From an uncultured bacterium (GTDB taxonomy: Bacteria; Planctomycetota; UBA1135; GCA-002686595), in the NCBI GenBank assembly GCA_938030175.1, contig CALHGQ010000056.1, positions 1 to 32,150 on the forward strand: DNA of 32,150 nt, written 5' to 3'. Of this stretch, positions 2,196 through 31,861 are shown piece by piece. A program made the position numbers and the translations under genes. Every line of letters begins with the position of its first letter. The first letter of the stretch is position 1. The notes under the pieces are model-generated. The model was given only the letters and a program-made list of their open reading frames with translations, made no database searches and was not told the DNA's origin.

Positions 2196-2822
2196 ATGGA
2201 TACTCCTCATCGAATCTCAACGAGCCATGCTGTCGGGGCGGTTGCCCACGCTGGCGCGGACGCGAAATCTACGTCATTTGCGACCGCTAAGAAGGCGGTG
2301 CAGCGGCCCGGAGCGCCGTCGGACCAGCTGCTCAAGTGCACGAAGAAGATCATCCTTCTCGGGCACTTTGGGGTCGGGAAGAGCAGCCTAGTGCAGCGCT
2401 TTGTGCACTCCGTTTTCTCGGCCGAATACCAGTCCACGATCGGCGTCAAAGTCGACAAGAAGCTCGTTGTGACCCCCACGCACGAGATGAAGATGGTTCT
2501 CTGGGACATCGAGGGCGCGCCCGATCAAACGAGCCTTCCGCGCTCCTACTTCGCAGGAGCGCACGGGATCCTCTACGTCTGCGACGTCACTCGCTCGTCG
2601 ACCTACCGCGACCTGTCGAAGACGCTTCCCGAACTCGTGCAGAAGTCGCCACGGGCCTCCATCGTCGTCATCGGCAACAAAATGGATCTTGTTGGCGAGG
2701 AGCAGCTCGAGGAGATGCGGGCTTTGGAGAACCCGGGCTTCGACTTCCTGAGCAGCGCGGGTACAGGAGAGAACGTGGAAACAGCGTTCCAAACGTTGGC
2801 GCGCAAGATCCTCGCAGCATGA
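2196..2822 (+). CDS. Rab/Ras-like small GTPase
   Basis: GHFGVGKSS (G1), YQSTIGVKV (switch I), WDIEGAPDQ (G3), NKMDL (G4), SSAGTG (G5). Confidence 0.85.
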   Translation: MDTPHRISTSHAVGAVAHAGADAKSTSFATAKKAVQRPGAPSDQLLKCTKKIILLGHFGVGKSSLVQRFVHSVFSAEYQSTIGVKVDKKLVVTPTHEMKMVLWDIEGAPDQTSLPRSYFAGAHGILYVCDVTRSSTYRDLSKTLPELVQKSPRASIVVIGNKMDLVGEEQLEEMRALENPGFDFLSSAGTGENVETAFQTLARKILAA

Positions 2823-3574
2823 ACCTCGACGAACTCAAGCTCGCTGCCCTCGCCGGCGAGTACCAGGTCGCGACCATCGACCCGGATGGAACGCTACTGA
2901 ATAGCTGCCACTCCTTGATCGACCTGCGCGACTCGATCGGCAAGCCATTCTTCGATCACTTCTCCATCTTCTGCGGCCTGCACCCCGAAGTGATGAGCCT
3001 CAACGAGTCCGATCCGGAGCTGTGCGTGCCGAAGGTCTCTGCACCAGAGTTTAGGACGGACGAGCACCTCGACTTCAGGTTTCGATTCAGAGGAAAGGGC
3101 CGCTCGGTCCTGCTGCTGATCTCCGCCCATGAGAGCGTCAACCGCCAGCTCCAGGAGACCCAGCAGCAACGCAACGAGACGGCGATCGCCTCGGAGCATC
3201 AGCGGGATAGGGACGCAGCTACCCGCGCAGAGAACGGCAGCCTGAGGAACTACGCGAGTGAGCTTTCCCACGACTTGAAAGCGCCACTCCGCGCGATCAG
3301 CCATCTCGCCGTTTGGGTGGAGGAGGCCGTGAAGGAAGGCAACCACGACAAGGTCTCCGAGTACCTCGACCTGATGAAGTCCCGGACCCATCGCATGGAG
3401 TCGTTGGTGGACGGACTGCTCGAGAGGCCGCGCGCCCGCGGTCTCTGCGCCGAAAGCTCGCTCGCAGCGAACCAGAGCCGCGGCCCCGAGCCCCCCGCCT
3501 GCGCGAGCTCTTGGCTCACCTGGCAGAACGCTAGCCCACCGGACTCGGCAACCAGTTCACCTGCCCATGGCTAA
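2819..3574 (+). CDS. Truncated sensor histidine kinase: HisKA/DHp domain without HATPase_c
   Basis: ATGA overlap with GTPase stop; H-box ELSHDLKAPLRAISHLAVWVEE; ends about 65 aa after the DHp region with no N/G boxes. Track ORF 2336-3574 is the same frame over-extended. Confidence 0.7.
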   Translation: MNLDELKLAALAGEYQVATIDPDGTLLNSCHSLIDLRDSIGKPFFDHFSIFCGLHPEVMSLNESDPELCVPKVSAPEFRTDEHLDFRFRFRGKGRSVLLLISAHESVNRQLQETQQQRNETAIASEHQRDRDAATRAENGSLRNYASELSHDLKAPLRAISHLAVWVEEAVKEGNHDKVSEYLDLMKSRTHRMESLVDGLLERPRARGLCAESSLAANQSRGPEPPACASSWLTWQNASPPDSATSSPAHG

Positions 3575-4820
3575 GACAAGTAACAACACGCAGCCAGTCC
3601 TTGCTCCCCGGCCAAGGCCCGCTGGTAGTCCGCTCTCGCACACCTCGCTGACGGTCGATGCGCAGACGCTTCCGGTCAACATCGTCGTGCTTGACGATGA
3701 CGTGGTGGATCTTGAGATCTTCAAGCGGTGCACCGACGACCTGGTCGACATGGAGGTTTCGCTCCGCACGTGCAGGTTGGCATCGGAGGCAGAGGCCGCT
3801 TTCGAAGAGGCTCCCTGTGACCTCTTCTTCGTCGACTATCGCCTTGGCTCGACGAACGCCGTCGAGGTGCTGGGCAACCTTCGAAGCAAGGGACACTCCC
3901 CCACCACAGTGCTCCTGTCCGGAGGCTCGGGGGACGACGTGATCCGCGCGGCCGTCCGCGGCGGATTCGTGGACTTCATGCCCAAGCAGTTCATTGTGCC
4001 CGAGCTCCTTGGCCAGGTCATCAGGAGCAGCCTGGAGAAGGCACGCCTCAAGGCCGAGGTCGTGGAGAAGCAGGCGGAGCTCGCGGCCACCGTCCAAAAT
4101 CTACAGGCCAGTCGCGAGGAGATCCGACTGCTCTACCACCGTGTGGGGCACGAGCTGAAGACACCGCTGACCGGCGCGCGGGAATTCGCCTCTCTCATCC
4201 GCGATGGGGCCACGGGCCCCGTCTCTGCCGATCAATCGGGACTCTTGGATGCGATCACGAGGAACTGTGACCGCATGGCCGTCTGCATCAACGACATGCT
4301 GGACGCGGCGAGGCTGGACTCCGGAAAGCTGGCTCTCAAGATCCGCGACGCGGACCTCTGGGGTGTTCTGAACGATGCTGCGAAGAGCCTCAAGGCAACC
4401 GCTGTTGAGAAAGGAATCTCCCTCGACCTAGAGACTAGCGTTCCCGCGGAGAGGATGACTTGCTCGATCGACCCCGACCGTGTCTTCCAGGTCGTCGGCA
4501 ACCTCTTGTCCAACGCCATCAAGTTCACACCCAAGGGTGGCGCGATCAGGATCACCGTCTCCTCAGAAGATCCCGACTCCCTCAGCGTCACGGTGAAAGA
4601 CACCGGCTGCGGCCTCGCTCCCGAAGACCTTACCCGGATCTTCGACCGACTCGTCCAATCCAAAGAGGAGGACGCCACCGTGCTCGGCGGCCTCGGAATG
4701 GGCCTCTACATCTGCCGAGAGCTCGTTCACCTGCACGGCGGCGAGATCTCGGTGTCCTCCGAGGTGGGCGTCGGCTCTGAATTCGCCTTCTCACTCCCCA
4801 CGACCCTCCCGCAAGCATGA
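3567..4820 (+). CDS. Hybrid REC-HisKA-HATPase histidine kinase
   Basis: REC (VVLDDDVVDLE...FFVDYRLGS...LLSGGSGDD), H-box RVGHELKTPL, N-box NLLSNAIKFTP, G boxes DTGCGL and GLGMGLYICRELV. Confidence 0.92.
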   Translation: MAKTSNNTQPVLAPRPRPAGSPLSHTSLTVDAQTLPVNIVVLDDDVVDLEIFKRCTDDLVDMEVSLRTCRLASEAEAAFEEAPCDLFFVDYRLGSTNAVEVLGNLRSKGHSPTTVLLSGGSGDDVIRAAVRGGFVDFMPKQFIVPELLGQVIRSSLEKARLKAEVVEKQAELAATVQNLQASREEIRLLYHRVGHELKTPLTGAREFASLIRDGATGPVSADQSGLLDAITRNCDRMAVCINDMLDAARLDSGKLALKIRDADLWGVLNDAAKSLKATAVEKGISLDLETSVPAERMTCSIDPDRVFQVVGNLLSNAIKFTPKGGAIRITVSSEDPDSLSVTVKDTGCGLAPEDLTRIFDRLVQSKEEDATVLGGLGMGLYICRELVHLHGGEISVSSEVGVGSEFAFSLPTTLPQA

Positions 4821-5305
4821 CCACCCCATCACCTGGACCCACCGACGTCGATCCGTCCAGCCACGTGGCCGAGCCTACAGCCAGAGGGGTGGAGGCTTCG
4901 AACGAAGCGCACAAGCGCCCACGGATCTTGGTGGTCGAGGACGACGAGGACATCATGCGATGCCTCGCCATGCGCCTCGAGCTCAGCGGCTTCGAAGTGC
5001 TGGGTGCGGGGGACCACAGATCAGCGCTCGAGCTGGCCGAAGGAAGCCCCCCCGACGCCGCGATCTTCGACATCTCGTTCCCCGGAGGCGACGGCGTGAT
5101 GTTGACGAAAGAGCTACGTGAACGCGCCGCCACCGAGCAGCTCCCCGTGATGATCCTGACGGCGAGCATGCGGCCAGGGATCGAGGAGGAAGCGCTCGCC
5201 TCGGGCGCCACCGGCTTCATGCGCAAGCCCTACGACTCCCGCGCCCTGGTCTCAGAGCTCAAGCGTTGGTGCAGCGACGACGCGGTCGAGCAGCTCGCCC
5301 CCTAG
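4817..5305 (+). CDS. Stand-alone response regulator receiver protein
   Basis: ILVVEDDEDIMRCLAMRLE...AIFDISFPGGDG...MILTAS...GFMRKPYD; ATGA overlap with preceding kinase. Confidence 0.9.
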   Translation: MTTPSPGPTDVDPSSHVAEPTARGVEASNEAHKRPRILVVEDDEDIMRCLAMRLELSGFEVLGAGDHRSALELAEGSPPDAAIFDISFPGGDGVMLTKELRERAATEQLPVMILTASMRPGIEEEALASGATGFMRKPYDSRALVSELKRWCSDDAVEQLAP

Positions 5306-12385: not shown

Positions 12386-13453
12386 CTAGGAGAGAAGGGA
12401 ACGGAGTCGATCGACGCGTTCGAGCGCGGCGCCGGAGTCAAGTGCGCTCGTCGCCGCATCCACACCTTCTGCGATCGTCAGACAGCGGCCCGAAGCCTTG
12501 AGCATCAGCGCGGCGGACAACAGCGTGGCGTTGCGTGCCGGGCCGGTCTCACCCGCGAGGACCGCCTTGGTCATGTCGCCGGCGGCTTGGCAAAGGACCG
12601 GGTTGTCGGATGCACCTTGGCCCTCCTCGTGGGGCCCGAAGAGCGGGAGCTCTGGATCGCCTGAAGCGTCGAGACCGAAGTCCGCCGGCTCGACCGTGAC
12701 CGAGAGCAGATGATCCCCGTCGATCTCGATCCCACGCGTCCGCTTGACGATGCTGGGAACGACGCCTCCGTCGAGCCCTTGGAGAGCTACGCCACGCCGG
12801 TGGCCGAGGCCCTTCAGGACCTCCACGGCGGTACCGAGCACGGGCCCGCTTTGCGCGCCGATGAGAATGGCGGCACCGGCGGGGGCGATGAGCTTTTCGA
12901 GGGTGGAGAGCGGCGTCCGAATCACCATGTCGCCGCGGACCTTGCGGAGCGCCAGCATCGGGGGGCAGAGCCCAGCCACGGAGACCGTGGCGAAACCCGC
13001 CTTCGCGACCCAGTCCTCAGCCTCGCCCGGGTCCCAGGTCATGGAGAGCCCGAGGCCTTCGAGGACGTTGGCAGCCGTGAGCCCCCGACGCGGCGGTACG
13101 CAGCGGTCGGAGACCACGAGCACCCGGGCGCCGGCCGCAGCGGCCAGGAGGCCAGCGGCCACCTCGAGGGGCGGGGTGGTCTCATGGCCGTCCTGGGAAG
13201 GAGCCACGCACACGAGGCCGTTCATGCCCGCACAAGGAATGCGCGATTGACCCCGGGCCGCCATGGCCATGCCCATGAGCTCTTCAGTCGTGACCCCTTT
13301 CCACCGCAGGGTGACGAAAAACGAAGCCACCAGGGCCGCGCTTTCCGAACCGTTCAGAATCGCGGTGAAGGCATGGGAGGCCTCTTCCCTGCTCAAGTTT
13401 CGGACGCGCTTCGGGTCCGCAGTCAGGGAGCGCATGAGTCGGCGTAGCACCAT
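12386..13453 (-). CDS. Glycosyltransferase family 3 / anthranilate phosphoribosyltransferase-like protein (TrpD2/YbiB-like)
   Basis: LSREEASHAFTAILNGSESAALVASFFVTLRWKGVTTEEL N-terminal GT3 domain; LTAANVLEGLG and VRTPLSTLEKLIAP. Confidence 0.75.
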   Translation of the reverse strand: MVLRRLMRSLTADPKRVRNLSREEASHAFTAILNGSESAALVASFFVTLRWKGVTTEELMGMAMAARGQSRIPCAGMNGLVCVAPSQDGHETTPPLEVAAGLLAAAAGARVLVVSDRCVPPRRGLTAANVLEGLGLSMTWDPGEAEDWVAKAGFATVSVAGLCPPMLALRKVRGDMVIRTPLSTLEKLIAPAGAAILIGAQSGPVLGTAVEVLKGLGHRRGVALQGLDGGVVPSIVKRTRGIEIDGDHLLSVTVEPADFGLDASGDPELPLFGPHEEGQGASDNPVLCQAAGDMTKAVLAGETGPARNATLLSAALMLKASGRCLTIAEGVDAATSALDSGAALERVDRLRSLLS

Positions 13454-14547: not shown

Positions 14548-14732
14548 TGGGGGCAGGTCGGAACCCGGAGGACCCACGAACGCGGGGGTCCAAGACCCGA
14601 CCCGGGGAAGCCTACAGACTGACCCCACGGACGGCACGCCAGATATCTAAGTCGCTCGCGCGCGTTCGAAACAGTCGAATTTGGAATCCAGGAGACCAGG
14701 GGTGAGGCGGGTGTCACAAGAAAAGACAGAGA

Positions 14733-14756
14733 GCGCCTCCGATCTCTCGGAGGCGC
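14733..14756 (-). terminator. Intrinsic terminator, probably bidirectional, at 3' end of the amidohydrolase array
   Basis: Perfect 10-bp stem GCGCCTCCGA-TCTC-TCGGAGGCGC; T-rich tract on the minus strand (TCTCTGTCTTTTCTT) and CCCTTTCTC on plus. Confidence 0.75.
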
Positions 14757-14849
14757 CCTTTCTCGCTGCCAGGAAACTGGTTCCGTTAGGACATTCGTGG
14801 CCCCATGGAAGGCTTCCCAGGCTGCGGATCGATGCTATGGATCGGCAGG

Positions 14850-16358
14850 CTACTGGCCGTCTCTGAACCCATCTCCGCCGTCTCCGTCCCCAGAGCCGCC
14901 GTCGTCGCCGTCTCCGGCCCCGTCATCGCCCTCTCCGTCACCTTTGGCGTCGTCCGGCGTCTCATCGCCACCCTCTTCAGGTGCGTCCTCTTCAGGTGCG
15001 TCCTCTTCGGGCTCAATAGCGCCTTCCTCCCCGGCGTCCATGGCCTCCTCAGGCGCAAGCGCCGACTCCGGGCGGGGACGGATGTGAGCGAAGAACATCT
15101 CCTCCTGCTTGTCGTACACGACCTCGCCGTCCACGATCGCCCATTGGACGAAGGTCTGGTAGTGGAGCACGTCGCCGTCCGTGACGATTAGGTCAGCATC
15201 CTTGCCGACCTCGATGGATCCGATGCGGTAGTCCACGCCGAGGACACGGGCCGCCTCGAGGGTGATGGACTCCAGGGCCGCGTCCTCGGGGAGGCCGCCA
15301 CGGATGGCAAAGCCCGCCTCGATCGGCAGGTGCAGGAGGTCCTGACCCACGATGCCGCCGAGGGAAATACCCCGAGAGGCCGGAACGACCACCACGGGGA
15401 CACCGTGGTTGTGGAGCTTGGCTGCGTTCTCGATGGAGCTACCACCCTCAGCGACCTGGCGCTCGTCCTTGCCGCGGCGGGTCCGCGGAGTGACGATCGC
15501 GGTGACGCCGGCGCGTCCCAGCTCGTCGGCCACGGCCCATCCCTCGCGGGCTCCTTCGATGATCGGACGGAAGCCGTAGCGCTGGGCCAAGGCCGCGATC
15601 TCCACGAGGTCAGTGCGGGTGTTGGCCGCGAAGCGCGGACGCGTGTCCCCGCGCAGGATGCCGACGTACTTCGCGTCGACGCCCTTCCGGGAGGGCTCCT
15701 TCGCCTCCTTGTTGGACCGCTTCTCGACCTCGTACGCGCGGTAGGTCCGCAGGAACGCGGCCGCCTTTGCGAAGTCAGCTTCGACCTTGAGCTGCCCCTG
15801 GGGGTTGCCGTTGCTGTAGCTGATCGTCTCGAACGCGCTCTCCTTGAGCACGAGCCCTTCGACATGACCGCGCTTGAGCTTGGCCACCGTGTTGCCGTTC
15901 ACGGCGGTCGTGATGCCCGCCGCCAGCGCCAGGGTCATGTTCTGGTTGTAGGGATCGACGGAGTCGCTGAGGTCCCCGCTGCCGCCGAAGAGGCCGAACG
16001 AACCGACGGCCACAAGGCCCGGGTAGATCCGCATCCCGTTCACGTCGACCACTTCTGCGCCTTCCGGCACATCCACGTCGTAGCCGAACGCCTCGATCTT
16101 GCCGTTCTTGGAGAGGAGCGTCGCGTCGCGCAGCACGCCCCCGAGACCGGTGTGGATCTCGCCGCCGACGAGGGCGAGGTACTCGTCCTCTTCCTCTTCC
16201 TCCTCCTCTTCTTCGTCCTCCCACGCGTAGGGAGCGGGATAGCTAGCGGTGGCGGAACGAAGAACGTTGGCCGAGGCTCCGGCCGCGAAGAGGAGAGCCG
16301 TCAGGGCCGTGCCCATCGCCCATGCGCCTCTGGATGAAGTCATTTGAAGCTGTTTCAC
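14850..16358 (-). CDS. A11: secreted amidohydrolase-like protein, predicted inactive; acidic N-terminal stretch and D/E/G-rich C-terminal tail
   Basis: Signal peptide (MTSSRGAWAMGTALTALLFAAGASA); amidohydrolase end signature LGVDYRIGSIEVGKDADLIVTDGD; HxH position reads LVAVGSFG. Confidence 0.85.
   Translation of the reverse strand: MKQLQMTSSRGAWAMGTALTALLFAAGASANVLRSATASYPAPYAWEDEEEEEEEEEDEYLALVGGEIHTGLGGVLRDATLLSKNGKIEAFGYDVDVPEGAEVVDVNGMRIYPGLVAVGSFGLFGGSGDLSDSVDPYNQNMTLALAAGITTAVNGNTVAKLKRGHVEGLVLKESAFETISYSNGNPQGQLKVEADFAKAAAFLRTYRAYEVEKRSNKEAKEPSRKGVDAKYVGILRGDTRPRFAANTRTDLVEIAALAQRYGFRPIIEGAREGWAVADELGRAGVTAIVTPRTRRGKDERQVAEGGSSIENAAKLHNHGVPVVVVPASRGISLGGIVGQDLLHLPIEAGFAIRGGLPEDAALESITLEAARVLGVDYRIGSIEVGKDADLIVTDGDVLHYQTFVQWAIVDGEVVYDKQEEMFFAHIRPRPESALAPEEAMDAGEEGAIEPEEDAPEEDAPEEGGDETPDDAKGDGEGDDGAGDGDDGGSGDGDGGDGFRDGQ
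14972..15001. repeat. Two exact copies of a 15-bp tandem repeat (cctcttcaggtgcgt) encoding the EDAPEEDAPE stretch in the A11 tail
   Basis: Read directly: 14972-14986 and 14987-15001; a third degenerate copy follows. Confidence 0.8.
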
Positions 16359-17683
16359 TAGTGCATATCCCCGCTAACAAACTTGCCGTCAAGCATGACC
16401 GCGTCGAGGTTGGTTCCCGGCTGGAACGGGTCTCCATTGAAAATGAGCAGGTTGGCGCGGCGGCCTTCCTGGAGCGACCCCACGCGGTCCTCGAGTCCGA
16501 GAAACTTGGCGGGACGGTGGGTCAGGGCTTGGATCGCAGCCTTGCGGTCCAGGCCAGCCCCGATCATGACGCCGACGTCCTCGAGGAAGGCCTTGAAGCC
16601 AGCCTCGTTGTCACGACGCGGGATGAGCACGAGCTTGGCGCCGGCACGCTCGAACTCGGCCGGCAGGTTGCGCTGGCGCATGGTGCCCGGCATCAGGGTG
16701 ATCAGCGGCTCCATAAGAACGAAGCATCCAGTCTCGCCTACCTTGTCCTTCACGTGGAAGACATCGATGTCACGGGTGAGTGGAACGCGCAGGTGCCACT
16801 CGAACTCTTCTTCACCGACCGCGTCCACAAGGTGAACGAAGCTCGCAGCCGAGCCCACGGAGAAGAGCGCGCTGAGCTTGCCATCACGCAGGTCGAAGAA
16901 GGGCTGAATGCGGGCGTCGGGCTTCGGGGCCTCGAACTTGGGCGCCTTCGAAGACTTGGACGACTTCGAGCTGCTCTTCTTCTCGTCTTCCTTTTCCTTG
17001 TCGTCTTCGTCGTCCTTCTTGGATGAAGACTTCTTCTTCGAGGACGACTTCTTCGAGTTCTTCTTCTCGAACTTCTCGCGCTCCTTCTTGACCTTCTCCA
17101 GGTGAGCATCGGCCTTCTTGAAGCCGTCCCTTAGGTTGCGCTTGGAGCTCGCGGAGTTGCGCATCACGAACTTCAGGTAGACACCGTCCTCGAGGATCAT
17201 GTCCTCTGCGTCGTCCCCCTGGGGCTTCACAGCGACCGCTTGTCCGGGAACGCCCTGGCCGGCCGGGTACTGCGCGACGGTGGTCATCCCGTACTCGAGG
17301 AACGTCTCGTACGCGTCCGACGGATACAGTTCCGCCGAAGCCATGACGTAGGGCCGCGCATCGTTGTAGCCGTTACCCGACATGCCGAAGCGCGAGTACG
17401 GGTTGACGATCCCGGGCATCACCACCTGGTCGTCGCTCAGCTCAATGACGGGAATACCGCGCTCGATCGGAAGGTCCTGGCCCATGGTGACGATCTCGCC
17501 GTCCTCCACAAGAATGACAGCGTGCTCCATCACCTCGCCGTTGCCGATTTCGACGCGACGGGCTTTGATGGCGAACAGATCTCCCTGGGGAGGTGCGTTC
17601 AGCGCGCTTGGGTCCAGACCAGGGGCCGGGCCCCCGAGAGACCCAGTGAGGGCTGGAAGAAGTAGAAGGGAGGAAATCATCAT
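16358..17683 (-). CDS. A10: secreted amidohydrolase-like protein, predicted inactive; K/S/D/E-rich insert
   Basis: Signal peptide MMISSLLLLPALTGSLG; VVMPGIVNPYSRFG replaces HxH; FLGLEDRVGSLQEGRRANLLIFNGDP; insert EKKNSKKSSSKKKSSSKKDDEDDKEKEDEKKSSSKSSKSSK. Confidence 0.85.
   Translation of the reverse strand: MMISSLLLLPALTGSLGGPAPGLDPSALNAPPQGDLFAIKARRVEIGNGEVMEHAVILVEDGEIVTMGQDLPIERGIPVIELSDDQVVMPGIVNPYSRFGMSGNGYNDARPYVMASAELYPSDAYETFLEYGMTTVAQYPAGQGVPGQAVAVKPQGDDAEDMILEDGVYLKFVMRNSASSKRNLRDGFKKADAHLEKVKKEREKFEKKNSKKSSSKKKSSSKKDDEDDKEKEDEKKSSSKSSKSSKAPKFEAPKPDARIQPFFDLRDGKLSALFSVGSAASFVHLVDAVGEEEFEWHLRVPLTRDIDVFHVKDKVGETGCFVLMEPLITLMPGTMRQRNLPAEFERAGAKLVLIPRRDNEAGFKAFLEDVGVMIGAGLDRKAAIQALTHRPAKFLGLEDRVGSLQEGRRANLLIFNGDPFQPGTNLDAVMLDGKFVSGDMH
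16955..17105 (-). other. Low-complexity K/S/D/E-rich insert in A10
   Basis: EKVKKEREKFEKKNSKKSSSKKKSSSKKDDEDDKEKEDEKKSSSKSSKSSKAPK. Confidence 0.85.
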
Positions 17684-17760
17684 GGAATGACCCGAGACGT
17701 GTCTCGGAGGGAAAAGCTTCGGATGAAGAAGGCCGAAGGGGAGGAACGCGGCGGGAGGAG

Positions 17761-18960
17761 CTAGAAGAGCTGGCCGTCGCGATCTTGGTCGTATTCGAGG
17801 TTCCCGTTGACGTAGACGGATTGGACAGCGGAGCGAGGATCCAGCGGATCGCCACCCCAGAGAACGATGTCGGCGTCTTTGCCGACCTCAAGGCTGCCGA
17901 TGTGTTCGGACAGGTCGAACGCTTTGGCAGGGTGAATCGTGAGGGCACGCAGCATCTGGTACGGATCCGCCCCGTAGCGTGCGCTCATGGAGCCTTGGAG
18001 GAAGAAGAGCTCCTCGGGGATGACACCGGAATCGGTGTTGAGGGAAAACAGCGGCACGCCGGCCTTCACGAACTCGGCGCCGGAGCCGATGATCCGCCCC
18101 TCGCGGCTGCTGAAGTAGTCGATGGTTCGCGGACCGTGGTTCACCGGAATGCCCACCGACGCCAGAGCTTCCGCGGACTTCCAGCCGTCGAAGCTTCCGT
18201 GGGAGACCACGGCCTTCGCGCCGTACTTGACCTTCCACATGCGGGCGGTGTTCAGCACGCCCTCGCTGCCGGCGGTGTGAATCAGCACCGGGATCTCCCC
18301 GTGAAGGACCTTTTCCAGGTCGATCAATGCCGGATCAAAGCGGTCCATCCGGCGCGAGGCGAGCGCGCGGTTGTTCACGTCCGTGAGGTTCCACTCCATC
18401 CCCGCACGGGTCACTCCAAAGTCGGTGGAGTTGCGCCCTTGGGGATTGGAGTCCTGGGCGATCTTGATTCCGCCCGGGCTCTTGTGGATGGAAGCGTCAA
18501 AGCCAGCGCGCGCTGGCTTGTAGACGAAGCCGACGCCGCCCATGTTCGTGCCGCTACCGGGGATGCCAAAGAGGCTCGTCACGCCCCCCGCGCGCCCGAC
18601 GCGAATGAGCGGGTTCTCGGGCTTGAACGCGGCCACGGCCCGAAGCTCTGGGTTCACGGCGTGGACCATGTCGTTGACGTCGCCGAACCCGCCGCTATGG
18701 ATGTGCGTGTGCAGGTCCACGAGCCCAGGGGAAGCCCATGAGCTACGGCGGTCCAACGGCTCTGGCAGGTCAGGTCGATCGACGATCGGACCGGCGTAGG
18801 CAATGTCACCGTCGGCGATGACGAGCATGGCGGGCGAGATCACCTCGTCCGCGTCGTTCATCGTGAGAAGCTTGCCGACGTGAAGTACGACGGGCTCCGA
18901 TGCTTCGCTCGAACCTTGCAGGGCAAGGGCTGCGGCGGCCAGTGTCAGGAGGGCGCCCAT
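17761..18960 (-). CDS. A9: secreted amidohydrolase, metal ligands intact
   Basis: SPGLVDLHTHIH (HxH), IKIAQDSNP, VLIHTAG, VVSHGSFD, LNTDSGVIPEE; signal peptide MGALLTLAAAALALQGSSEA. Confidence 0.92.
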   Translation of the reverse strand: MGALLTLAAAALALQGSSEASEPVVLHVGKLLTMNDADEVISPAMLVIADGDIAYAGPIVDRPDLPEPLDRRSSWASPGLVDLHTHIHSGGFGDVNDMVHAVNPELRAVAAFKPENPLIRVGRAGGVTSLFGIPGSGTNMGGVGFVYKPARAGFDASIHKSPGGIKIAQDSNPQGRNSTDFGVTRAGMEWNLTDVNNRALASRRMDRFDPALIDLEKVLHGEIPVLIHTAGSEGVLNTARMWKVKYGAKAVVSHGSFDGWKSAEALASVGIPVNHGPRTIDYFSSREGRIIGSGAEFVKAGVPLFSLNTDSGVIPEELFFLQGSMSARYGADPYQMLRALTIHPAKAFDLSEHIGSLEVGKDADIVLWGGDPLDPRSAVQSVYVNGNLEYDQDRDGQLF

Positions 18961-20243
18961 TACCAGCTCCTCCCGTCGCGGTCAGCGCAATAGGCACAGG
19001 CGCCGTTGACCCAGGTCGCCTCAAAGGCGGTTCGCGGATCGATGGGGTCGCCGTCCGTCACGATGAAGTCGGCGTCCTTCCCAACCTCAAGGCTACCGAC
19101 GCGGTGGGCGATGCCCGCGGTGCGCGCAGGCACGATCGTCACGCCACGGAGCCCTTGGCCGCGCTCGTTGCGAAGGCCATACCGCACCCCCATGGCCGCC
19201 TGCATCGACAGCTCTTCCTGGGGCACCACCGGAGCGTCGGTGTTGAACCCAACCTCGTCCATACCCGCCTCTTGAAAGCCCCATGCGGTGCCTTCGATCC
19301 GGCCGTCCGTGTCGAAGCGCGGCGGCCGAGGGATCATGATCTCCCGCGGGCCGAGGATGGCTGCGACGCCGTACTTCTTGGCCTCGGGGGTCGTGAGGTA
19401 GCTATCGAATGAGCCGTGATCGATGTAAGTCGGCAGCCCAAAGTCACGCGCCAGAAGCGTGATCGACATCAGCACGAGCTGGTAGTACTGCGTGTGCGTC
19501 GAGACCTGCGTGCGGTTTGCGTAGAGCTCGCGGAAGATGTCGAGCCCAAGGTCGCGCTTCGGCTTTTCTCCCTCGCCGTTCTCGAAGCGCTCCCAGGCGC
19601 GGGCGTAGCTGCGGCCCCGCGTGAGGCGGTAGCGCAGCGTGTAGTTCATCAGGATGCGTCCCATCCCGTAGCCCCAGCGGGTGGGGTTGTCCCCCTGGGC
19701 GATCTTGAGTGAGCCGGGATCGCGAACCAGCGCGTCCTCGTACTCGTCCTCGCCGAGCTTCATCAGAACGCCTTGGCCCCCGATGTTCGTACCCGACCCA
19801 GGGATGAAAAGGATGGTGGTGACGCCCGCGGCGAGCGGGCGCTCCAGCCGTGAGTTGTTGGGAACCACCACCGGTGAAACGCGGAGCTCCGAGTTCACCT
19901 GGTAGACCATGTCGTTGATGTCCCCCGTCGACCCGCCCACGTGGCTGTGCAGGTCGATGAAGCCCGGGGCGAGCCAATGGTCGCCGTAGTCCGTGACGTT
20001 GACCCACTCCTTATCGGCAACGTCAGCGCCCGCATGGATGGCGACGATCTTGCCGTCGGCGATCACCATCACGGGATCCTCCACCACCTGGACGCCTTCG
20101 TCGGCGCAGGTAATGAGCTTCCCGGCTCGCACGACCAACGAACCGATGGGTTGCCCTGGGGGCAACTCGGTCGAAGGGCTGTCCACGCGCGCGCCTACTG
20201 CGGCGCAGAGCGCGAGGGCCGGGATCGTCAGGGTGAGGAACAT
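18960..20243 (-). CDS. A8: secreted amidohydrolase, metal ligands intact
   Basis: APGFIDLHSHVG, LKIAQGDNP, STHTQ, YIDHGSFD, FNTDAPVVPQEE; signal peptide MFLTLTIPALALCAAVGA. Confidence 0.92.
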   Translation of the reverse strand: MFLTLTIPALALCAAVGARVDSPSTELPPGQPIGSLVVRAGKLITCADEGVQVVEDPVMVIADGKIVAIHAGADVADKEWVNVTDYGDHWLAPGFIDLHSHVGGSTGDINDMVYQVNSELRVSPVVVPNNSRLERPLAAGVTTILFIPGSGTNIGGQGVLMKLGEDEYEDALVRDPGSLKIAQGDNPTRWGYGMGRILMNYTLRYRLTRGRSYARAWERFENGEGEKPKRDLGLDIFRELYANRTQVSTHTQYYQLVLMSITLLARDFGLPTYIDHGSFDSYLTTPEAKKYGVAAILGPREIMIPRPPRFDTDGRIEGTAWGFQEAGMDEVGFNTDAPVVPQEELSMQAAMGVRYGLRNERGQGLRGVTIVPARTAGIAHRVGSLEVGKDADFIVTDGDPIDPRTAFEATWVNGACAYCADRDGRSW

Positions 20244-20263
20244 GGAGGGGAGGACTGAGTCGC

Positions 20264-21694
20264 CTACCAGAGACGCTTCTCTTCGGACGTGTCGTACACG
20301 GACTCACCGCTCTGCCATGCGGCCTTCACGAAGCTGCGAGGGTCAGCGGGGTCGCCGGTGATCCAGAGCAGGTCCGCAATCTTGCCGACCTCGATGCTGC
20401 CAAGGGACTCATCGAGTCCACACGCCATGGCCGGCACGATGGTCAAGCCGCGGACAGCGTCCATCTTTGAGTTGTCGAAACCGTAGCGAACGCCCATGGC
20501 TGCCTGCAGGGGCAACTCTTCCTGGGGGATCACAGGGGAGTCGGTGTTGAACCCGATGCGCGTCACCCCCATCTCTTGGTAGCCGGCCACGCAGCCCTGA
20601 ATGCGCTCAGGGTTCGAGCCTGACCAGTTGATGAAGCCGCGGGTGGGAACGTCGATCGCACGGGGCCCGACGATGGCGAAGATCTCACGGTCCTCGATCT
20701 CCTGGCCGAGGCGCCACGTGTCGAAGGTGCCGTGGTCGATGTACACCGGGATGCCCAGCTCGTCGTGCACCATCGTCAGCGTCTTGAGTGCAACCTGGTA
20801 GATCTGCGTGTGGGTCGAGATCTGCGCTTCCTTCGCCATCAGGGCGCGGAAGGTCTCGAACTGCGGATCGATCTCAGGCCTCTCGCCGCCGTTCTTCTCG
20901 TACTCCGTCCACTTGGCCGCGTAGTTCGTGCCGCGACGCAAGGTGTTCCGCGTGTTCCAGTTCATGAACGTACGGCTCGGAGAGATCGTCCAACGTTCCG
21001 GGTTACCGGCCTGGGCCAGCTTCATGGAGCCGGGGTCACGGATCTCTGCGCGGTCGAACGTGTCGAAGCCCGAGCGCAGGAGAATGCCCTGGCCGCCGAT
21101 GTTCGCGCCGGAACCGGGGATGTACAGCACGGTCGTCACGCCGGCGGCCAGGCCGCGGCGCAGGGCGCCGTTGCCTGCGATCACGTCGCTGGACGCGCGC
21201 AGCCCTGGGTTCGTGAGGTAGACCGTGTCGTTGAGACCAAACGCGCCGGCGATGTGGCAGTGCAGCTCCACGATGCCCGGCATGAGCCAGTCGTTCCCGA
21301 GGTCCTTGACCTCGTAGTCGGACGGGATCTCGATTTCTGAGGCGGGGCCAACCGCTTCGATGCGCCCATCCTTGACGAGCACCACGCCGTTGTTCACGAC
21401 GGAGCGCCCCTGCCATTCGGCGGTCAGGATCTTCTTCGCGGTCACAGCGAGGCCAGGACCGTCCAGCATGCCAGCCTTCGGGGCGGCGGCGGCACGGCCC
21501 GGCACCACGGGGGGCTTCGGGGCGATACCGTTCGGATCGCGCTTCAGGATGGGCCGCTTCGCGGGCTTGGAGGCGTCGAAGGAGTCGGCGCTCGCATCAG
21601 CACACAAGACAAGGCCCAGAGCCGCGGCGGCACTGACTCCAAGGGTCGACAAAGCCGCGGAGGTTCCGCGCAGACGGTTCAGGGTTTCGCGCAT
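20264..21694 (-). CDS. A7: secreted amidohydrolase, metal ligands intact
   Basis: MPGIVELHCHIAG, MKLAQAGNPE, STHTQIYQV, YIDHGTFD, FNTDSPVIPQEE; signal peptide STLGVSAAAALGLVLCADASA. Confidence 0.92.
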   Translation of the reverse strand: MRETLNRLRGTSAALSTLGVSAAAALGLVLCADASADSFDASKPAKRPILKRDPNGIAPKPPVVPGRAAAAPKAGMLDGPGLAVTAKKILTAEWQGRSVVNNGVVLVKDGRIEAVGPASEIEIPSDYEVKDLGNDWLMPGIVELHCHIAGAFGLNDTVYLTNPGLRASSDVIAGNGALRRGLAAGVTTVLYIPGSGANIGGQGILLRSGFDTFDRAEIRDPGSMKLAQAGNPERWTISPSRTFMNWNTRNTLRRGTNYAAKWTEYEKNGGERPEIDPQFETFRALMAKEAQISTHTQIYQVALKTLTMVHDELGIPVYIDHGTFDTWRLGQEIEDREIFAIVGPRAIDVPTRGFINWSGSNPERIQGCVAGYQEMGVTRIGFNTDSPVIPQEELPLQAAMGVRYGFDNSKMDAVRGLTIVPAMACGLDESLGSIEVGKIADLLWITGDPADPRSFVKAAWQSGESVYDTSEEKRLW

Positions 21695-23067
21695 CAGTAG
21701 CGGCGCTCTTCGAGCGCGTCGTAGACCTTTTCACCCTCTTGGAAGGTGAGGTAAATCATCGTGCGGGGGTCTGTCGGATCCCCAGACGAAAGAATGAAGT
21801 CGGCGTCCTTGCCGGGCTCGAGGCTGCCGACTCGATCGGCGATACCTGCGGCAGTGGCGGGCACGATCGTGAGGCCGCGGACGTGGAGGGCGGCGTCGTT
21901 CTTGAAGCCGTAGCGCACCGCCATGGCGGCCTGGAGCGGGAGCGCCTCCTGGGGGATCACCGGGGAGTCCGTGTTGAAGCCGATCATCGTGTGACCCTCC
22001 TCCTGGTACTTCGCGGCGATGCCGAAGATCGCGCCGTCGTTGTCGTTCACGATGAAGAGACCGGGGCGGTACTCCACGTTGATGCTGTTGCTGATGGCGC
22101 GCGGCCCGAGGATCGCGGGGACGCCAGCCTTCTCGGCCTCAGGCGCGGCGCGCCAGCCGTCGAATGAACCGTGGTCGATGTAGACGTCGAGCCCGAGCTC
22201 TTCCTTGACCATCTTCACGGTCATGAGGACGACCTGATAGATCTGCGTGTGCGCCGAGAGCTGGACCTTCTTGTCCACGAGTCCACGGAAGGCGCTCCAC
22301 ATCGGATCGGCCTTGGGCTTCTCACCGCCGTTCTTCTCGAAGCTGGTCCACGACTTCGCGTAGGCGATGCCGCGCTTCAGCGTGTGGCGCGTGTTCCAGT
22401 TCATGAAGGAACGCCCGACGCCCATGAGGAAGCTCTCGGGGTTGCCCGCCTGGGCCAGCTTCAGGGAGCCGGGGTTGCGAATCTCCATCCGCTCGTACTT
22501 CTCAAAGCCGGTCTTGAGGAGCACGCCTTGGCCGCCGATGTTCGTGCCCGAACCCGGGATGTAGAGCACGCTCGTGACCCCGGCGGCGGAGCCGTTGAGG
22601 AAGTCGCTGTTGCCAGGCACCACCGACGTCCAGGCACGGATGCCCGGATTGGTCAGGTAGACCATGTCGTTGAGGTCGTTCGTGAAGAAACTCGCGCCCG
22701 CGACGTGGCTGTGCAGGTCGATCATCCCCGGCGAGAGCCAGTCCGACGATCGGTCGAGGATCTCGTGGGTCTCCGCGAGGGCCTCAAGGTCGACTTCGCT
22801 GCGTCGAGCGATGCGGACCACCTTGCCCTCTTCGACGATCATCGCGGCGTTGTCGATGACCTGCTCGCCCTCCAAGGGCATCGCAAGGGCCTTCTTCGCC
22901 AAGACGACTAGGCCTCGCTCGGCACCTGCCGCGCCCGGTGATGGATCACCCACAGCTCCGCTCCACCCCATCGCACCCGCGCCAGCCATGCTGACGAGAA
23001 GTGCGGCGGAGAGAGAGGCGGCCGCGATGCGCGACAGAGTCCCTGGAGTCGAAACCTGGAGCCCCAT
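21694..23067 (-). CDS. A6: secreted amidohydrolase, metal ligands intact
   Basis: SPGMIDLHSHVAG, LKLAQAGNPE, SAHTQIYQV, YIDHGSFD, FNTDSPVIPQE; signal peptide region SRIAAASLSAALLVSMAGAGA. Confidence 0.92.
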   Translation of the reverse strand: MGLQVSTPGTLSRIAAASLSAALLVSMAGAGAMGWSGAVGDPSPGAAGAERGLVVLAKKALAMPLEGEQVIDNAAMIVEEGKVVRIARRSEVDLEALAETHEILDRSSDWLSPGMIDLHSHVAGASFFTNDLNDMVYLTNPGIRAWTSVVPGNSDFLNGSAAGVTSVLYIPGSGTNIGGQGVLLKTGFEKYERMEIRNPGSLKLAQAGNPESFLMGVGRSFMNWNTRHTLKRGIAYAKSWTSFEKNGGEKPKADPMWSAFRGLVDKKVQLSAHTQIYQVVLMTVKMVKEELGLDVYIDHGSFDGWRAAPEAEKAGVPAILGPRAISNSINVEYRPGLFIVNDNDGAIFGIAAKYQEEGHTMIGFNTDSPVIPQEALPLQAAMAVRYGFKNDAALHVRGLTIVPATAAGIADRVGSLEPGKDADFILSSGDPTDPRTMIYLTFQEGEKVYDALEERRY

Positions 23068-23069
23068 GA

Positions 23070-26000
23070 CTAGCGGACTTCCTTGCCGTTGACGAAGACG
23101 CGCAGGATGGAAGACGAGATCTCCATCGGGTTGCCGTCCAGGATGACGATGTCGGCGTCCATGCCGGCCTCAAGGGTTCCGACGCGGTCTTCGATGCAGA
23201 GCATCTTCGCTGCGTCGGAGGTCAGCCCCTTGAGGGCCGCCGACGGCGCCAGGCCCTGGGCCACTGCGCGCGCCGCCATGACGCTGAGCTCCGCGGCGCC
23301 CTCTTCCCGTTGGCTGAGGAAGGCGATCGGAATGCCAGCGGCTGAGACTTCCACGAGTCGGTTGCGCCGAAGCCCGCTCTTCTCCGTAGCCGTCATGCGG
23401 TTCATCGGAACGAGCACACCCGCGACACGACCCGCGATGCGGCCCGCGACCTTGTGGACATCGTCCGAGTCGATGAGCACCGGCTTGATGCCGTACTCCT
23501 CGAAGCGATCGACGCACGCGACGATCTGATCGTCGCGGCTGACCTTGACGATGACCGCTGCCTCGCCAGCCATGGCGCGACGGATCGGCTCGAGGTCGAG
23601 GTCGACAGAGGGCTTCTTCGGCATGCCCTTGGGCGGCTTCGGAGCCTTCTCTTTCTTCTCCACCTTCACGATGCGCTTGGCGACCTTGTACTCGGTGGAG
23701 GTCTGCGTCACGTCGACGGCGCCGAGAACGGTCTCGCCGTCCTTCACGTCGCCGCGCAGGTACGTCTTGACCGTGTCGTCCTCCTCCTCGTCTTTGTCCT
23801 CGTCCTTCTTGTCGGCATCCTTGTCGGCGTCTTTGTCGTCGTCCTTGGACTTCTTCGACTTCTTGGACTTCTTCGGCGGCGGATCGTTGGAGTAGATCTG
23901 AGCGAGGGTCGCCTCGAGGTCGCCATCAGGCGTCTCGATGGTCAGCGTCACGTCGTAGTCCGTTCGGCTGCCTGTGACCGTCAGAAGATCATCGAATCCG
24001 GCCATGCGAGCCGTACCTTCGATCGAGCCGTCTGCCGACTCCAAGAAGCGGAAGCGAACGCTGCCTGCGTCCTCGCCGTCAGCGGGCGTGAAGCTGCCAG
24101 CGAAGACGCCCGTCACCGGCTTGGCCGGGTCGCGCTCCTTCTTCTTCTTTTTCTTCTTGTCGTCCTCGTCCTCTTCCTCGTCGTCAGAGTCTTCGTCCTC
24201 GTCATCGTCCTCTTCCTCCGCGGCCTCAGGGGCGGGCGGAGTCCACTTGGCCATGTCGGCCTCGTACTTGTCCCAGCTATCCGCGTAGGCCTTGGCCTTC
24301 TTGAGCTGCTGGGTGACGTTGGCGCCGGACTGGGCGATGATCGAGTTGTCCCACTGCAAACGCACCGAAGCGACGCTGTCCACCACGAGGTGGTCGAAGC
24401 TGTCAGCCGCCGGCTTATAGGCGATCGACGGAGTGACCCCGCCGAGGTTCTGGGAGATCATGTTGACCGTGGTGACGCCGTTGCGTGCCACCTGTCGGTC
24501 TGCGTAGTCGCCGGGCTCTAGGATGCGAGTCAGGTCGAGGCGCGTCGTGAACGCCCGGCGACCGCCTTCGGTCCCGAGGTGCCCATAGGCGTCGATCATT
24601 CCAGGCATCGCGGAAGCGCCACGCACCACGGCAGCGCCGGCAGGCCGCGCGACCTGGGCCGCCACCTGGGCGATCTTGCCGTCCCGCACGAGGATCTCGC
24701 CGGGGCTGTGCACAACGCCGTTGCCCACGTGGAGCTCGTCGACGCTGATGACGACGGGCCCGGGGTTCGACGCTGCGGAAGACATCGACCCGCCGGAGCC
24801 ACCCGAGCCAGAGCCCGAGGATCCGCCCGCAGTCATGGCCGATGCCATGGTCGGGTTCCAAGCTTCGGTGCCGCCTACGTACGTGGCGACCACGGAAGCC
24901 CCGATGGAAAGGGGTGAGCCGGTCATGACGACGATGTCCGCGTCCTTACCGACCGCAAGGCTTCCGACACGATCGTCCACGCCGAGAACCTTCGCGGCGT
25001 TGAGCGTGATTCCGGCCAATGCGTCGGCCTCGGACAGGCCACCGCGCATGGCGAGGGCCGCAGCGAAACGAATTTCGGAGGCACCGAGGCCCTTCGGAAC
25101 GGTGATCGCGACTTCGACACCTTCGCCCACGAGGCGCGCAATGCCGTCGTAGGTCGGCCACTTCGCGGTCTCCGTCTTGCCGACGTTGCGTCCTTGCTCG
25201 TAGTGCGGACGCGCGATCACGGGCACGCCCGCGGCTGCGATGTCCTCGGCGAGGGAAGCCGCCTGGCTTGCCCCGTCGATCACGAGGGGGAATCCGAAGC
25301 GCTTGGCCAGGTCGAGGACCGCGGCGACTTCGCCCTGGGACTCGGCCCCAAGGCGCCAGGTCGCGCCCGCCTTCATTGCCTTGGCGAGGGCAGGACCCGT
25401 CTGGCGGCCGTACTCTTCCTCGAAGGAGCGGTCTCCCCCAGCAAAAGCCATGAGCTCTTCGATCGCGAGCACCGCGCCCATCGTGGTGCGCGGCAGCTGC
25501 GGCGACTCAACGCCCAGCCCAACGTCCACGGTCGCGGGCACGGGCGGTTCCCAGTAGCCGCGCGTCCGGCGCGCTTCCTCACTGATCGATCCGTGCAGGC
25601 CTGCGGACTCCAGCAGGACGCGAGCGTCCGGCGAGCCCATCTCACCACCACCCGTCTTGACGACGGCGCCCTGGCCAGCGATCAGTCGACCACGGGCCGG
25701 AGCGAGGTACACCGTGGTGATACCGCTCTTGAGTCCGGAGATGATGCTGGAGTAGGGATCGAACTGGTCGATCGCGAGCAGCGTCGGGTCCGCGGTGCGC
25801 GGCCCTGCCGTCGGGCTGGCGTACGCCGAATCCGCTGCCACGAAGCCAGGCACGATGACGGCCTCGGAGCCGTAGTCCATCGTGGTGGCGTTCGCCGGGA
25901 TCTCGACGTCGGCCGCGGCGCCAACAGCGGTGATCTTGCCGTCCGTGACGACGATCACGCCGTCTTCGAACGACGCGCCGCCCTCGACGGCATGGATGGT

Positions 26001-26174
26001 GCCGGCACGCAGCGCCATGGTGCCCGACTGGGTCGAGCTAGGCGCGTACGCCGTGGAAGGCATCGCCAGAGCGAAGGCCGTCGTCGCGGCTGCGGTCATG
26101 CCGAGAACGAGGCCAGGGGAGGCCTGACTCGCGGCGGATTGGAACGGCAGCAGTGTTGAAATGAGGTTACGCAT
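23070..26174 (-). CDS. A5: secreted tandem (double) amidohydrolase-like protein, both domains predicted inactive; acidic/Lys-rich inserts and a beta-rich inserted domain
   Basis: Two end signatures (LGVDDRVGSLAVGKDADIVVMTGSP and LCIEDRVGTLEAGMDADIVILDGNP); Gly/Ser linker between; HxH positions read GFVAADSAYA and GMIDAYGHLG. Confidence 0.88.
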   Translation of the reverse strand: MRNLISTLLPFQSAASQASPGLVLGMTAAATTAFALAMPSTAYAPSSTQSGTMALRAGTIHAVEGGASFEDGVIVVTDGKITAVGAAADVEIPANATTMDYGSEAVIVPGFVAADSAYASPTAGPRTADPTLLAIDQFDPYSSIISGLKSGITTVYLAPARGRLIAGQGAVVKTGGGEMGSPDARVLLESAGLHGSISEEARRTRGYWEPPVPATVDVGLGVESPQLPRTTMGAVLAIEELMAFAGGDRSFEEEYGRQTGPALAKAMKAGATWRLGAESQGEVAAVLDLAKRFGFPLVIDGASQAASLAEDIAAAGVPVIARPHYEQGRNVGKTETAKWPTYDGIARLVGEGVEVAITVPKGLGASEIRFAAALAMRGGLSEADALAGITLNAAKVLGVDDRVGSLAVGKDADIVVMTGSPLSIGASVVATYVGGTEAWNPTMASAMTAGGSSGSGSGGSGGSMSSAASNPGPVVISVDELHVGNGVVHSPGEILVRDGKIAQVAAQVARPAGAAVVRGASAMPGMIDAYGHLGTEGGRRAFTTRLDLTRILEPGDYADRQVARNGVTTVNMISQNLGGVTPSIAYKPAADSFDHLVVDSVASVRLQWDNSIIAQSGANVTQQLKKAKAYADSWDKYEADMAKWTPPAPEAAEEEDDDEDEDSDDEEEDEDDKKKKKKKERDPAKPVTGVFAGSFTPADGEDAGSVRFRFLESADGSIEGTARMAGFDDLLTVTGSRTDYDVTLTIETPDGDLEATLAQIYSNDPPPKKSKKSKKSKDDDKDADKDADKKDEDKDEEEDDTVKTYLRGDVKDGETVLGAVDVTQTSTEYKVAKRIVKVEKKEKAPKPPKGMPKKPSVDLDLEPIRRAMAGEAAVIVKVSRDDQIVACVDRFEEYGIKPVLIDSDDVHKVAGRIAGRVAGVLVPMNRMTATEKSGLRRNRLVEVSAAGIPIAFLSQREEGAAELSVMAARAVAQGLAPSAALKGLTSDAAKMLCIEDRVGTLEAGMDADIVILDGNPMEISSSILRVFVNGKEVR
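24130..24230 (-). other. Acidic-then-lysine block in A5 C-terminal domain
   Basis: APEAAEEEDDDEDEDSDDEEEDEDDKKKKKKKERDP; long purine tract on the coding strand. Confidence 0.85.
24775..24840 (-). other. Gly/Ser interdomain linker in A5
   Basis: AMTAGGSSGSGSGGSGGSMSSA between the two amidohydrolase units. Confidence 0.8.
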
Positions 26175-26195
26175 GGGTGGACTCCGGGGAGCCGA

Positions 26196-31673: not shown

Positions 31674-31861
31674 GCTCGAGGGATCGATCTTGCTAGGTGA
31701 GATAGAGAAAAGGGAGCGCCTGACCAGACGTTGGAATTCGCCTGGCCATGGAATGGGCCCTCTTGGATCGTATGGAGTCAGAGAACCCCGAACCATCTTG
31801 AAGCGGCACACAGCGCGATTGCGCCTGGAAGACTTACGCGCGGAGCAACACTGAGAGGGGC

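What the first reader, a model, noticed from the sequence alone, without database searches (positions are those of the whole stretch)
14850..31811. About 17 kb unidirectional array of 11 genes encoding only exported amidohydrolase-superfamily proteins (12 domains)
Seen: eleven consecutive minus-strand ORFs, mostly abutting or overlapping by 1 nt (e.g. 21694, 18960, 16358), each with an N-terminal signal-like segment, the N-terminal beta-sandwich pattern ('xAxKVITxxG...ENGxIVVxDGKIxAVG') and the C-terminal 'LGVDDRVGSLEVGKDADxVxxxGDP' signature. No transporter, regulator or other family interrupts them, and an intrinsic terminator closes the array. Established: the signatures are those of the amidohydrolase superfamily (imidazolonepropionase/prolidase-like). 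Inference: co-transcribed subunits of one extracytoplasmic system, not unrelated hydrolases. I believe small clusters of secreted amidohydrolases occur elsewhere; the size and exclusivity here are what stand out. Substrate unknown (peptides, N-acyl amino acids, polyamides or cyclic amides are guesses).
Basis: partly seen in the sequence, partly recalled or inferred. Interest (0 to 1): 0.92.

Follow-up and report, generated by a model that had tools for sequence, protein, structure and literature searches.

The report
Operon of mostly dead secreted amidohydrolases
An 11-gene operon in a planctomycete makes twelve related exported amidohydrolase-fold domains of which only four still have the metal site needed for catalysis, and the same gene order recurs across the phylum, which points to an undescribed enzyme assembly built from one working subunit type and many retired copies.

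Summary
The array is real: eleven minus-strand genes (14850-31811), all amidohydrolase superfamily, closed by a strong terminator hairpin. Only A6-A9 keep the metal ligands (HxH, K, H, H, D); the other eight domains have lost them. It is not local: the contig belongs to a Planctomycetota MAG of the genus of Poly30 (Saltatorellus ferox), and the order A1-A2-A3-A4-A5n.A5c-X-A10-A11 recurs in about 90 loci. A11 orthologues occur in 104 of 399 sampled Planctomycetota genomes (26 families). X, always with all six ligands, is single-copy in most lineages and amplified to 2-5 copies here. Dead slots are under purifying selection (dN/dS about 0.04-0.2); most form their own clade across the phylum, and several carry invariant new motifs. 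Neighbouring slots fuse in some lineages, and outside the array one active domain is fused to one or two dead ones. Best explanation (partly inferred): an exported hetero-oligomeric metallo-amidohydrolase in which one subunit type hydrolyses an amide bond and the dead paralogues supply scaffold and substrate binding. Closest structure: 3ooq (Thermotoga maritima, no function named in the entry). Substrate and assembly are untested. I found no description in the literature searched.

The parts
30135..31673 (-). A1: dead amidohydrolase domain (ORF extends to 31811; likely start M47 at 31673); fixed Trp at the HxH position in relatives
   Evidence: PF01979 7e-9; ligand row WTSHGG; start by Poly30 orthologue
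29002..30102 (-). A2: dead here (RAHEGD); fully catalytic-looking in one distant lineage, partly decayed in others
   Evidence: PF07969 5.5e-12
27782..28978 (-). A3: dead; PTTRMG motif invariant in 14 aligned relatives across the order and beyond
   Evidence: PF01979 1.3e-16; alignment A6; 3ooq 1.5e-26
26196..27689 (-). A4: dead (HSKWLS); fixed-length charged helical insert
   Evidence: PF07969 1.1e-6, PF01979 6.4e-6; 3ooq 3.5e-27
23070..26174 (-). A5: two dead domains (A5n, A5c) in one chain; A5c carries an inserted beta-rich domain (about residues 689-826)
   Evidence: PF01979 two stretches 2e-24; AlphaFold2 pLDDT 80; 3ooq TMt 0.80
21694..23067 (-). A6: predicted catalytic subunit, all six metal ligands
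   Evidence: ligand row HHKHHD; 3ooq profile match 2e-66 for A6-A9
20264..21694 (-). A7: predicted catalytic subunit, all six metal ligands
18960..20243 (-). A8: predicted catalytic subunit (H99, H101, K180, H250, H276, D336)
   Evidence: AlphaFold2 pLDDT 90; Foldseek 3ooq TMt 0.84-0.86
17761..18960 (-). A9: predicted catalytic subunit, all six metal ligands; absent from Poly30
16358..17683 (-). A10: dead; Tyr-x-Arg in place of HxH (Y 90%, R 100% in the slot set), RQRNLPAEF motif, K/E-rich insert
   Evidence: PF01979 1.1e-10
14850..16358 (-). A11: dead; no ligand kept in any of 68 orthologues; acidic low-complexity tail
   Evidence: PF01979 3.5e-11
14730..14759 (-). intrinsic terminator-like hairpin closing the array
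   Evidence: 13-pair stem then CTGTCTTTTC; z -3.5

Best explanation
The array encodes one exported hetero-oligomeric metallo-amidohydrolase. A6-A9 (single-copy 'X' in most other planctomycetes) are the catalytic subunits: metal-dependent TIM barrels that hydrolyse an amide or cyclic-amide bond, most plausibly of a peptide or N-acyl amino acid, in the periplasm or at the cell surface. The eight dead domains (A1-A4, A5n, A5c, A10, A11) are paralogues that lost the metal site and act as non-interchangeable structural or substrate-binding subunits of the same assembly. Shown: fold, ligand presence and loss, order conservation, purifying selection, slot-wise ancestry, fusions. Inferred: export, physical complex, metal occupancy, substrate class.
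For: Ligands: 219 of 220 A6-A9 domains keep HHKHHD (the one exception is a gap at both HxH columns in one alignment row); none of the 467 dead-slot rows keeps all six. Order invariant in about 90 loci; A11 orthologues in 104/399 phylum genomes with a clear score gap. Most slots form their own clade across families: A2, A3, A4, A5n, A5c, X and A11 exactly. dN/dS about 0.04-0.21 for dead, 0.03-0.12 for active slots in genus pairs. New fixed residues in dead sites (A10 Y-x-R, A1 W, A3 PTTRMG). Fusions of neighbouring slots: A1-A2-A3 (L128), A1-A2 (L130), A10-A11 (L126), A5n-A5c nearly everywhere. Related proteins outside the array fuse active+dead (L138, L140) or dead-active-dead (L168, L169, L170; own genome C229 similar in two chains). 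A dead A5 domain keeps the full fold. Precedent: inactive pseudo-dihydroorotase chain needed for ATCase activity in P. aeruginosa (PMC7053772); operon order tracks assembly (PMC4742563).
Against: No direct evidence of interaction, export or expression. Fusion and order conservation can also reflect co-regulation of proteins that work in parallel. The AlphaFold model of A5 has pTM 0.64, so packing between two dead domains is not resolved. Dead slots could bind ligands on their own.
Confidence: 0.55

Rival explanations
1. The dead paralogues are separate binding proteins (receptors or scavengers for amide metabolites or metals) that are co-expressed with the enzymes but do not assemble with them.
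For: Conserved replacement residues at the old active sites of A3 and A10 suggest ligand binding.
Against: Strict order over the phylum and covalent fusions of active with dead domains favour assembly; no transporter that would use binding proteins is encoded in the array.
Confidence: 0.2
2. Some or all 'dead' subunits are enzymes with a new, metal-free or differently liganded active site, so the array is a multi-step degradation pathway.
For: Slot-specific fixed residues (A10 Tyr-x-Arg; A3 PTTRMG; A1 Trp) and strong constraint. A2 still has all six ligands in one lineage (L123).
Against: In A4, A5n, A5c and A11 several old ligand columns are among the less conserved positions, unlike an active site.
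Confidence: 0.15
3. Ordinary tandem paralogues: a family of secreted hydrolases expanded by unequal crossing-over, partly decaying.
For: X copies do vary from 1 to 5 and A2 shows stepwise loss.
Against: Dead slots are old, mostly monophyletic across families, single-copy, in fixed order and under purifying selection.
Confidence: 0.07

Closest known systems
Thermotoga maritima amidohydrolase, PDB 3ooq (structural genomics, no function named in the entry)
   Same: Best sequence and structure match to A6-A9 (E 2e-66; TMt 0.84-0.86) and to the dead A3, A4 (E about 1e-26) and A5 (TMt 0.80)
   Different: Metal ligands intact; no array and no dead partners are part of the entry; its genome context was not examined here
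cog1228 prolidase / Xaa-Arg carboxypeptidases (3mtw Cc2672, 2qs8, 3be7) and ochratoxinase-type amidohydrolases (8ihq, 4c5y)
   Same: Same fold, beta-sandwich plus barrel, C-terminal GSLEVGKDAD signature
   Different: Much weaker match (TM about 0.5; E 1e-15 and weaker); NCBIfam Xaa-Pro dipeptidase 30-86 bits against cut-off 500
Pseudomonas aeruginosa ATCase with inactive pseudo-dihydroorotase (PMC7053772)
   Same: A catalytically dead amidohydrolase-superfamily chain required by its partner enzyme
   Different: One dead chain type, partner of another fold, cytoplasmic; here eight dead domains would partner an enzyme of their own family
Fused active+dead amidohydrolase proteins of Blastopirellula, Symmachiella and other planctomycetes (annotated 'amidohydrolase family protein')
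   Same: One HHKHHD domain joined to one dead domain, or dead-active-dead
   Different: One polypeptide with 2-3 domains instead of an 8-gene core; not described as pseudoenzyme systems in the papers searched

Membership tests
Amidohydrolase superfamily (PF01979/PF07969) | TIM-barrel plus beta-sandwich fold | tested here: met
   Pfam hits for all eleven; AlphaFold/Foldseek for A8 and A5
Amidohydrolase superfamily (PF01979/PF07969) | Metal ligands HxH, K, H, H, D in A6-A9 | tested here: met
   219 of 220 domains, the exception being a gapped row
Amidohydrolase superfamily (PF01979/PF07969) | Metal ligands in A1-A5, A10, A11 | tested here: not met
   No dead-slot row of 467 has all six; A11 has none in 68 of 68
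Imidazolonepropionase (TIGR01224) | Score above equivalog cut-off 298 | tested here: not met
   21-65 bits
Xaa-Pro dipeptidase (NF051886) | Score above equivalog cut-off 500 | tested here: not met
   30-86 bits
3ooq-like group | Full-length similarity to 3ooq as top structural match | tested here: met
   (A6-A9 as a profile, A3, A4, A5, A8; the other members not tested one by one)
Enzyme-pseudoenzyme heteromeric complex | Physical association of active and dead subunits | not testable with these tools
   Indirect only: order, fusions
Enzyme-pseudoenzyme heteromeric complex | Dead subunit retained under purifying selection | tested here: met
   dN/dS about 0.04-0.21 in five genus pairs
ATCase/pDHO complex | ATCase gene adjacent | tested here: not met
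   No ATCase among Pfam hits of the window ORFs tested

The most novel reading that the evidence does not exclude
A phylum-wide exported machine built from at least nine distinct paralogous amidohydrolase domains in fixed genetic order, where one subunit type is the only constant catalyst and the others became position-specific scaffold or substrate-handling parts: a pseudoenzyme-dominated hetero-oligomer, with dead-active-dead fusions as its minimal form.
Probability: 0.4. Interest if true: 0.9.

Novelty: new variant of a known kind. Interest (0 to 1): 0.76.

Why it matters
Most genes in the array lack the metal site, yet the Poly30 A11 orthologue is recorded as 'imidazolonepropionase' and relatives as 'amidohydrolase family protein', so automatic annotation misreads the system. 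If the complex exists it would be an extreme case of an enzyme surrounding itself with retired copies, kept in one gene order across much of a phylum. It gives a defined operon in cultured strains (Poly30, Pla86, Pla163) on which pseudoenzyme function, assembly order and substrate can be tested directly.

Tried and rejected
Twelve independent hydrolases: rejected, ligands lost in eight. Decaying pseudogenes: rejected by dN/dS and phylum-wide retention. Local expansion of one MAG or assembly artefact: rejected, collinear in the closed Poly30 genome and about 90 loci. Conserved neighbours as a functional clue: a TrpD2-like gene, Ppx/GppA and an upstream divergent small gene recur among close relatives and give no clue; several flank clusters were shadow ORFs. 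One eukprot protein fuses the active+dead pair to PDZ and S41 peptidase (P0196), but the ~1480-aa planctomycete proteins checked for the same fusion are three amidohydrolase domains instead, so the peptide hint rests on one record. A DNA scan for the A3 motif in viral contigs gave 25 matches that I did not follow up and take as likely chance. Literature searches found no description. The A6-A9 pattern scan of all GTDB species found 155 relatives; the 77 loci returned are titled Planctomycetota, planctomycete classes, 'uncultured bacterium' or 'bacterium', plus one Flavobacteriales MAG that I take, untested, as misnamed; no profile search of other phyla could be run.

Full report
Observation. 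The eleven minus-strand ORFs exist at the stated places, all belong to the amidohydrolase superfamily, and A5 has two domains. Spacing is tight, from -1 to 92 nt. A 13-pair hairpin with a T-rich tail lies 90 nt beyond A11. Downstream on the same strand lie a radical-SAM/SPASM gene, a TrpD2-like gene and a Ppx/GppA gene, which are not of this family. The window is a whole MAG contig, so A1 abuts the contig end.

In amidohydrolases of this type the metals are held by HxH, a lysine, two histidines and an aspartate (established knowledge of the superfamily). A6-A9 have all six; A1, A2, A3, A4, A5n, A5c, A10 and A11 do not. Across 675 collected domains from relatives plus the window's twelve, 219 of 220 in slots A6-A9 keep all six, the exception being a row gapped at both HxH columns. 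None of 467 in the other slots does; A11 keeps none in any of 68. So the array is 4 predicted enzymes and 8 pseudoenzyme domains. The dead copies are not decaying: within the genus dN/dS is about 0.04-0.21 for them and 0.03-0.12 for active ones (one short partial A1 comparison of 116 codons had no nonsynonymous change), and some old ligand positions are refilled by fixed residues: Tyr-x-Arg in A10 (Y 90%, R 100%), Trp in A1 (97%), and a near-invariant RRPTTRMG stretch in A3. In A4, A5 and A11 several old ligand columns are among the less conserved positions, which speaks for a structural role there.

Where it occurs. The MAG is of the same genus as Poly30, Saltatorellus ferox. A1-A11 are collinear in Poly30, which lacks A9, and in other genus and family members. 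Beyond the family the core order A1-A2-A3-A4-A5n.A5c-X-A10-A11 persists in different families of the phylum, usually with one X. Over about 90 loci (some genomes counted twice) the order was never broken; the two apparent exceptions are weakly scored labels in the right position. With an A11 profile, 104 of 399 phylum genomes have a match at E <= 1e-80, then a gap to 1e-73 (my count from its table), in 26 families. A tree of 211 domains puts A2, A3, A4, A5n, A5c, X and A11 each in an exact clade, A10 nearly so, and A1 only paraphyletically, with weak support for the A2 clade. The slots are therefore old and did not mix. A2 shows how a slot dies: all six ligands in L123, five in L089, L125 and L126, fewer in L109 and L128, and only the aspartate here (by eye on the alignment).

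Working together. Slots fuse in some lineages: A1-A2-A3 in one 1355-aa frame (L128), A1-A2 (L130; also L123), A10-A11 (L126), and A5n-A5c nearly everywhere. Outside the array, planctomycete proteins join one active domain to one dead domain (L138, L140), or dead-active-dead (L168, L169, L170); the window's own genome has a dead+active 1192-aa protein beside a dead 444-aa one on contig C229. Active and dead domains in one chain, repeatedly, is the best indirect evidence for physical assembly. AlphaFold2 gives A8 pLDDT 90 and Foldseek places it on 3ooq of Thermotoga maritima (TMt 0.84-0.86). A5 folds as two full domains, one matching 3ooq at TMt 0.80, though their mutual packing is not reliable (pTM 0.64). 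A1, A4, A5c and A10 carry longer, charge-rich inserts at the helical hairpin between the K and H ligands, possible contact elements.

Mechanism. Most likely an exported hetero-oligomer: X/A6-A9 hydrolyse an amide bond; dead subunits shape the assembly and bind substrate. Amplification of X in this family may broaden specificity. Precedent for a dead amidohydrolase chain needed by its partner is the ATCase/pDHO complex (PMC7053772), and operon order has been reported to follow assembly (PMC4742563). Shown here: fold, ligand loss, conservation, selection, fusion. Inferred: export, complex, metals, substrate.

Known or new. No paper found describes it; current names are 'imidazolonepropionase' or 'amidohydrolase family protein'. 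It does not meet the curated cut-offs for HutI or Xaa-Pro dipeptidase.

Noticed in passing
own genome C229 (L002 9096-14008): Second small system: 1192-aa dead+active and 444-aa dead amidohydrolase genes, next to a glucose/sorbosone dehydrogenase-like gene.
   Followed up: partly
window 2196-5305: Ras-family GTPase beside histidine kinase and response regulator genes, with a VC_2705-type Na/solute symporter at 72-1922.
   Followed up: no
L097:3233-3784, L092:17431-17967, L106:4779-5576: Uncharacterised divergent gene upstream of A1 in 18 family loci (LLLEPxYWRxRL motif), no Pfam match.
   Followed up: partly
window 12386-13453: TrpD2-like gene downstream of the array also in Poly30, Pla86 and G019; Ppx/GppA downstream in about 20 loci.
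   Followed up: partly
window 23697-24110: Beta-rich domain inserted in A5c (about residues 689-826), no Pfam match.
   Followed up: no
P0196: Eukprot record (possibly a bacterial contaminant, not tested) fusing PDZ and S41 peptidase to the active+dead amidohydrolase pair: a weak peptide-substrate hint.
   Followed up: partly
L123 (G242): A2 slot still has all six metal ligands, so the slot died stepwise in other lineages.
   Followed up: yes
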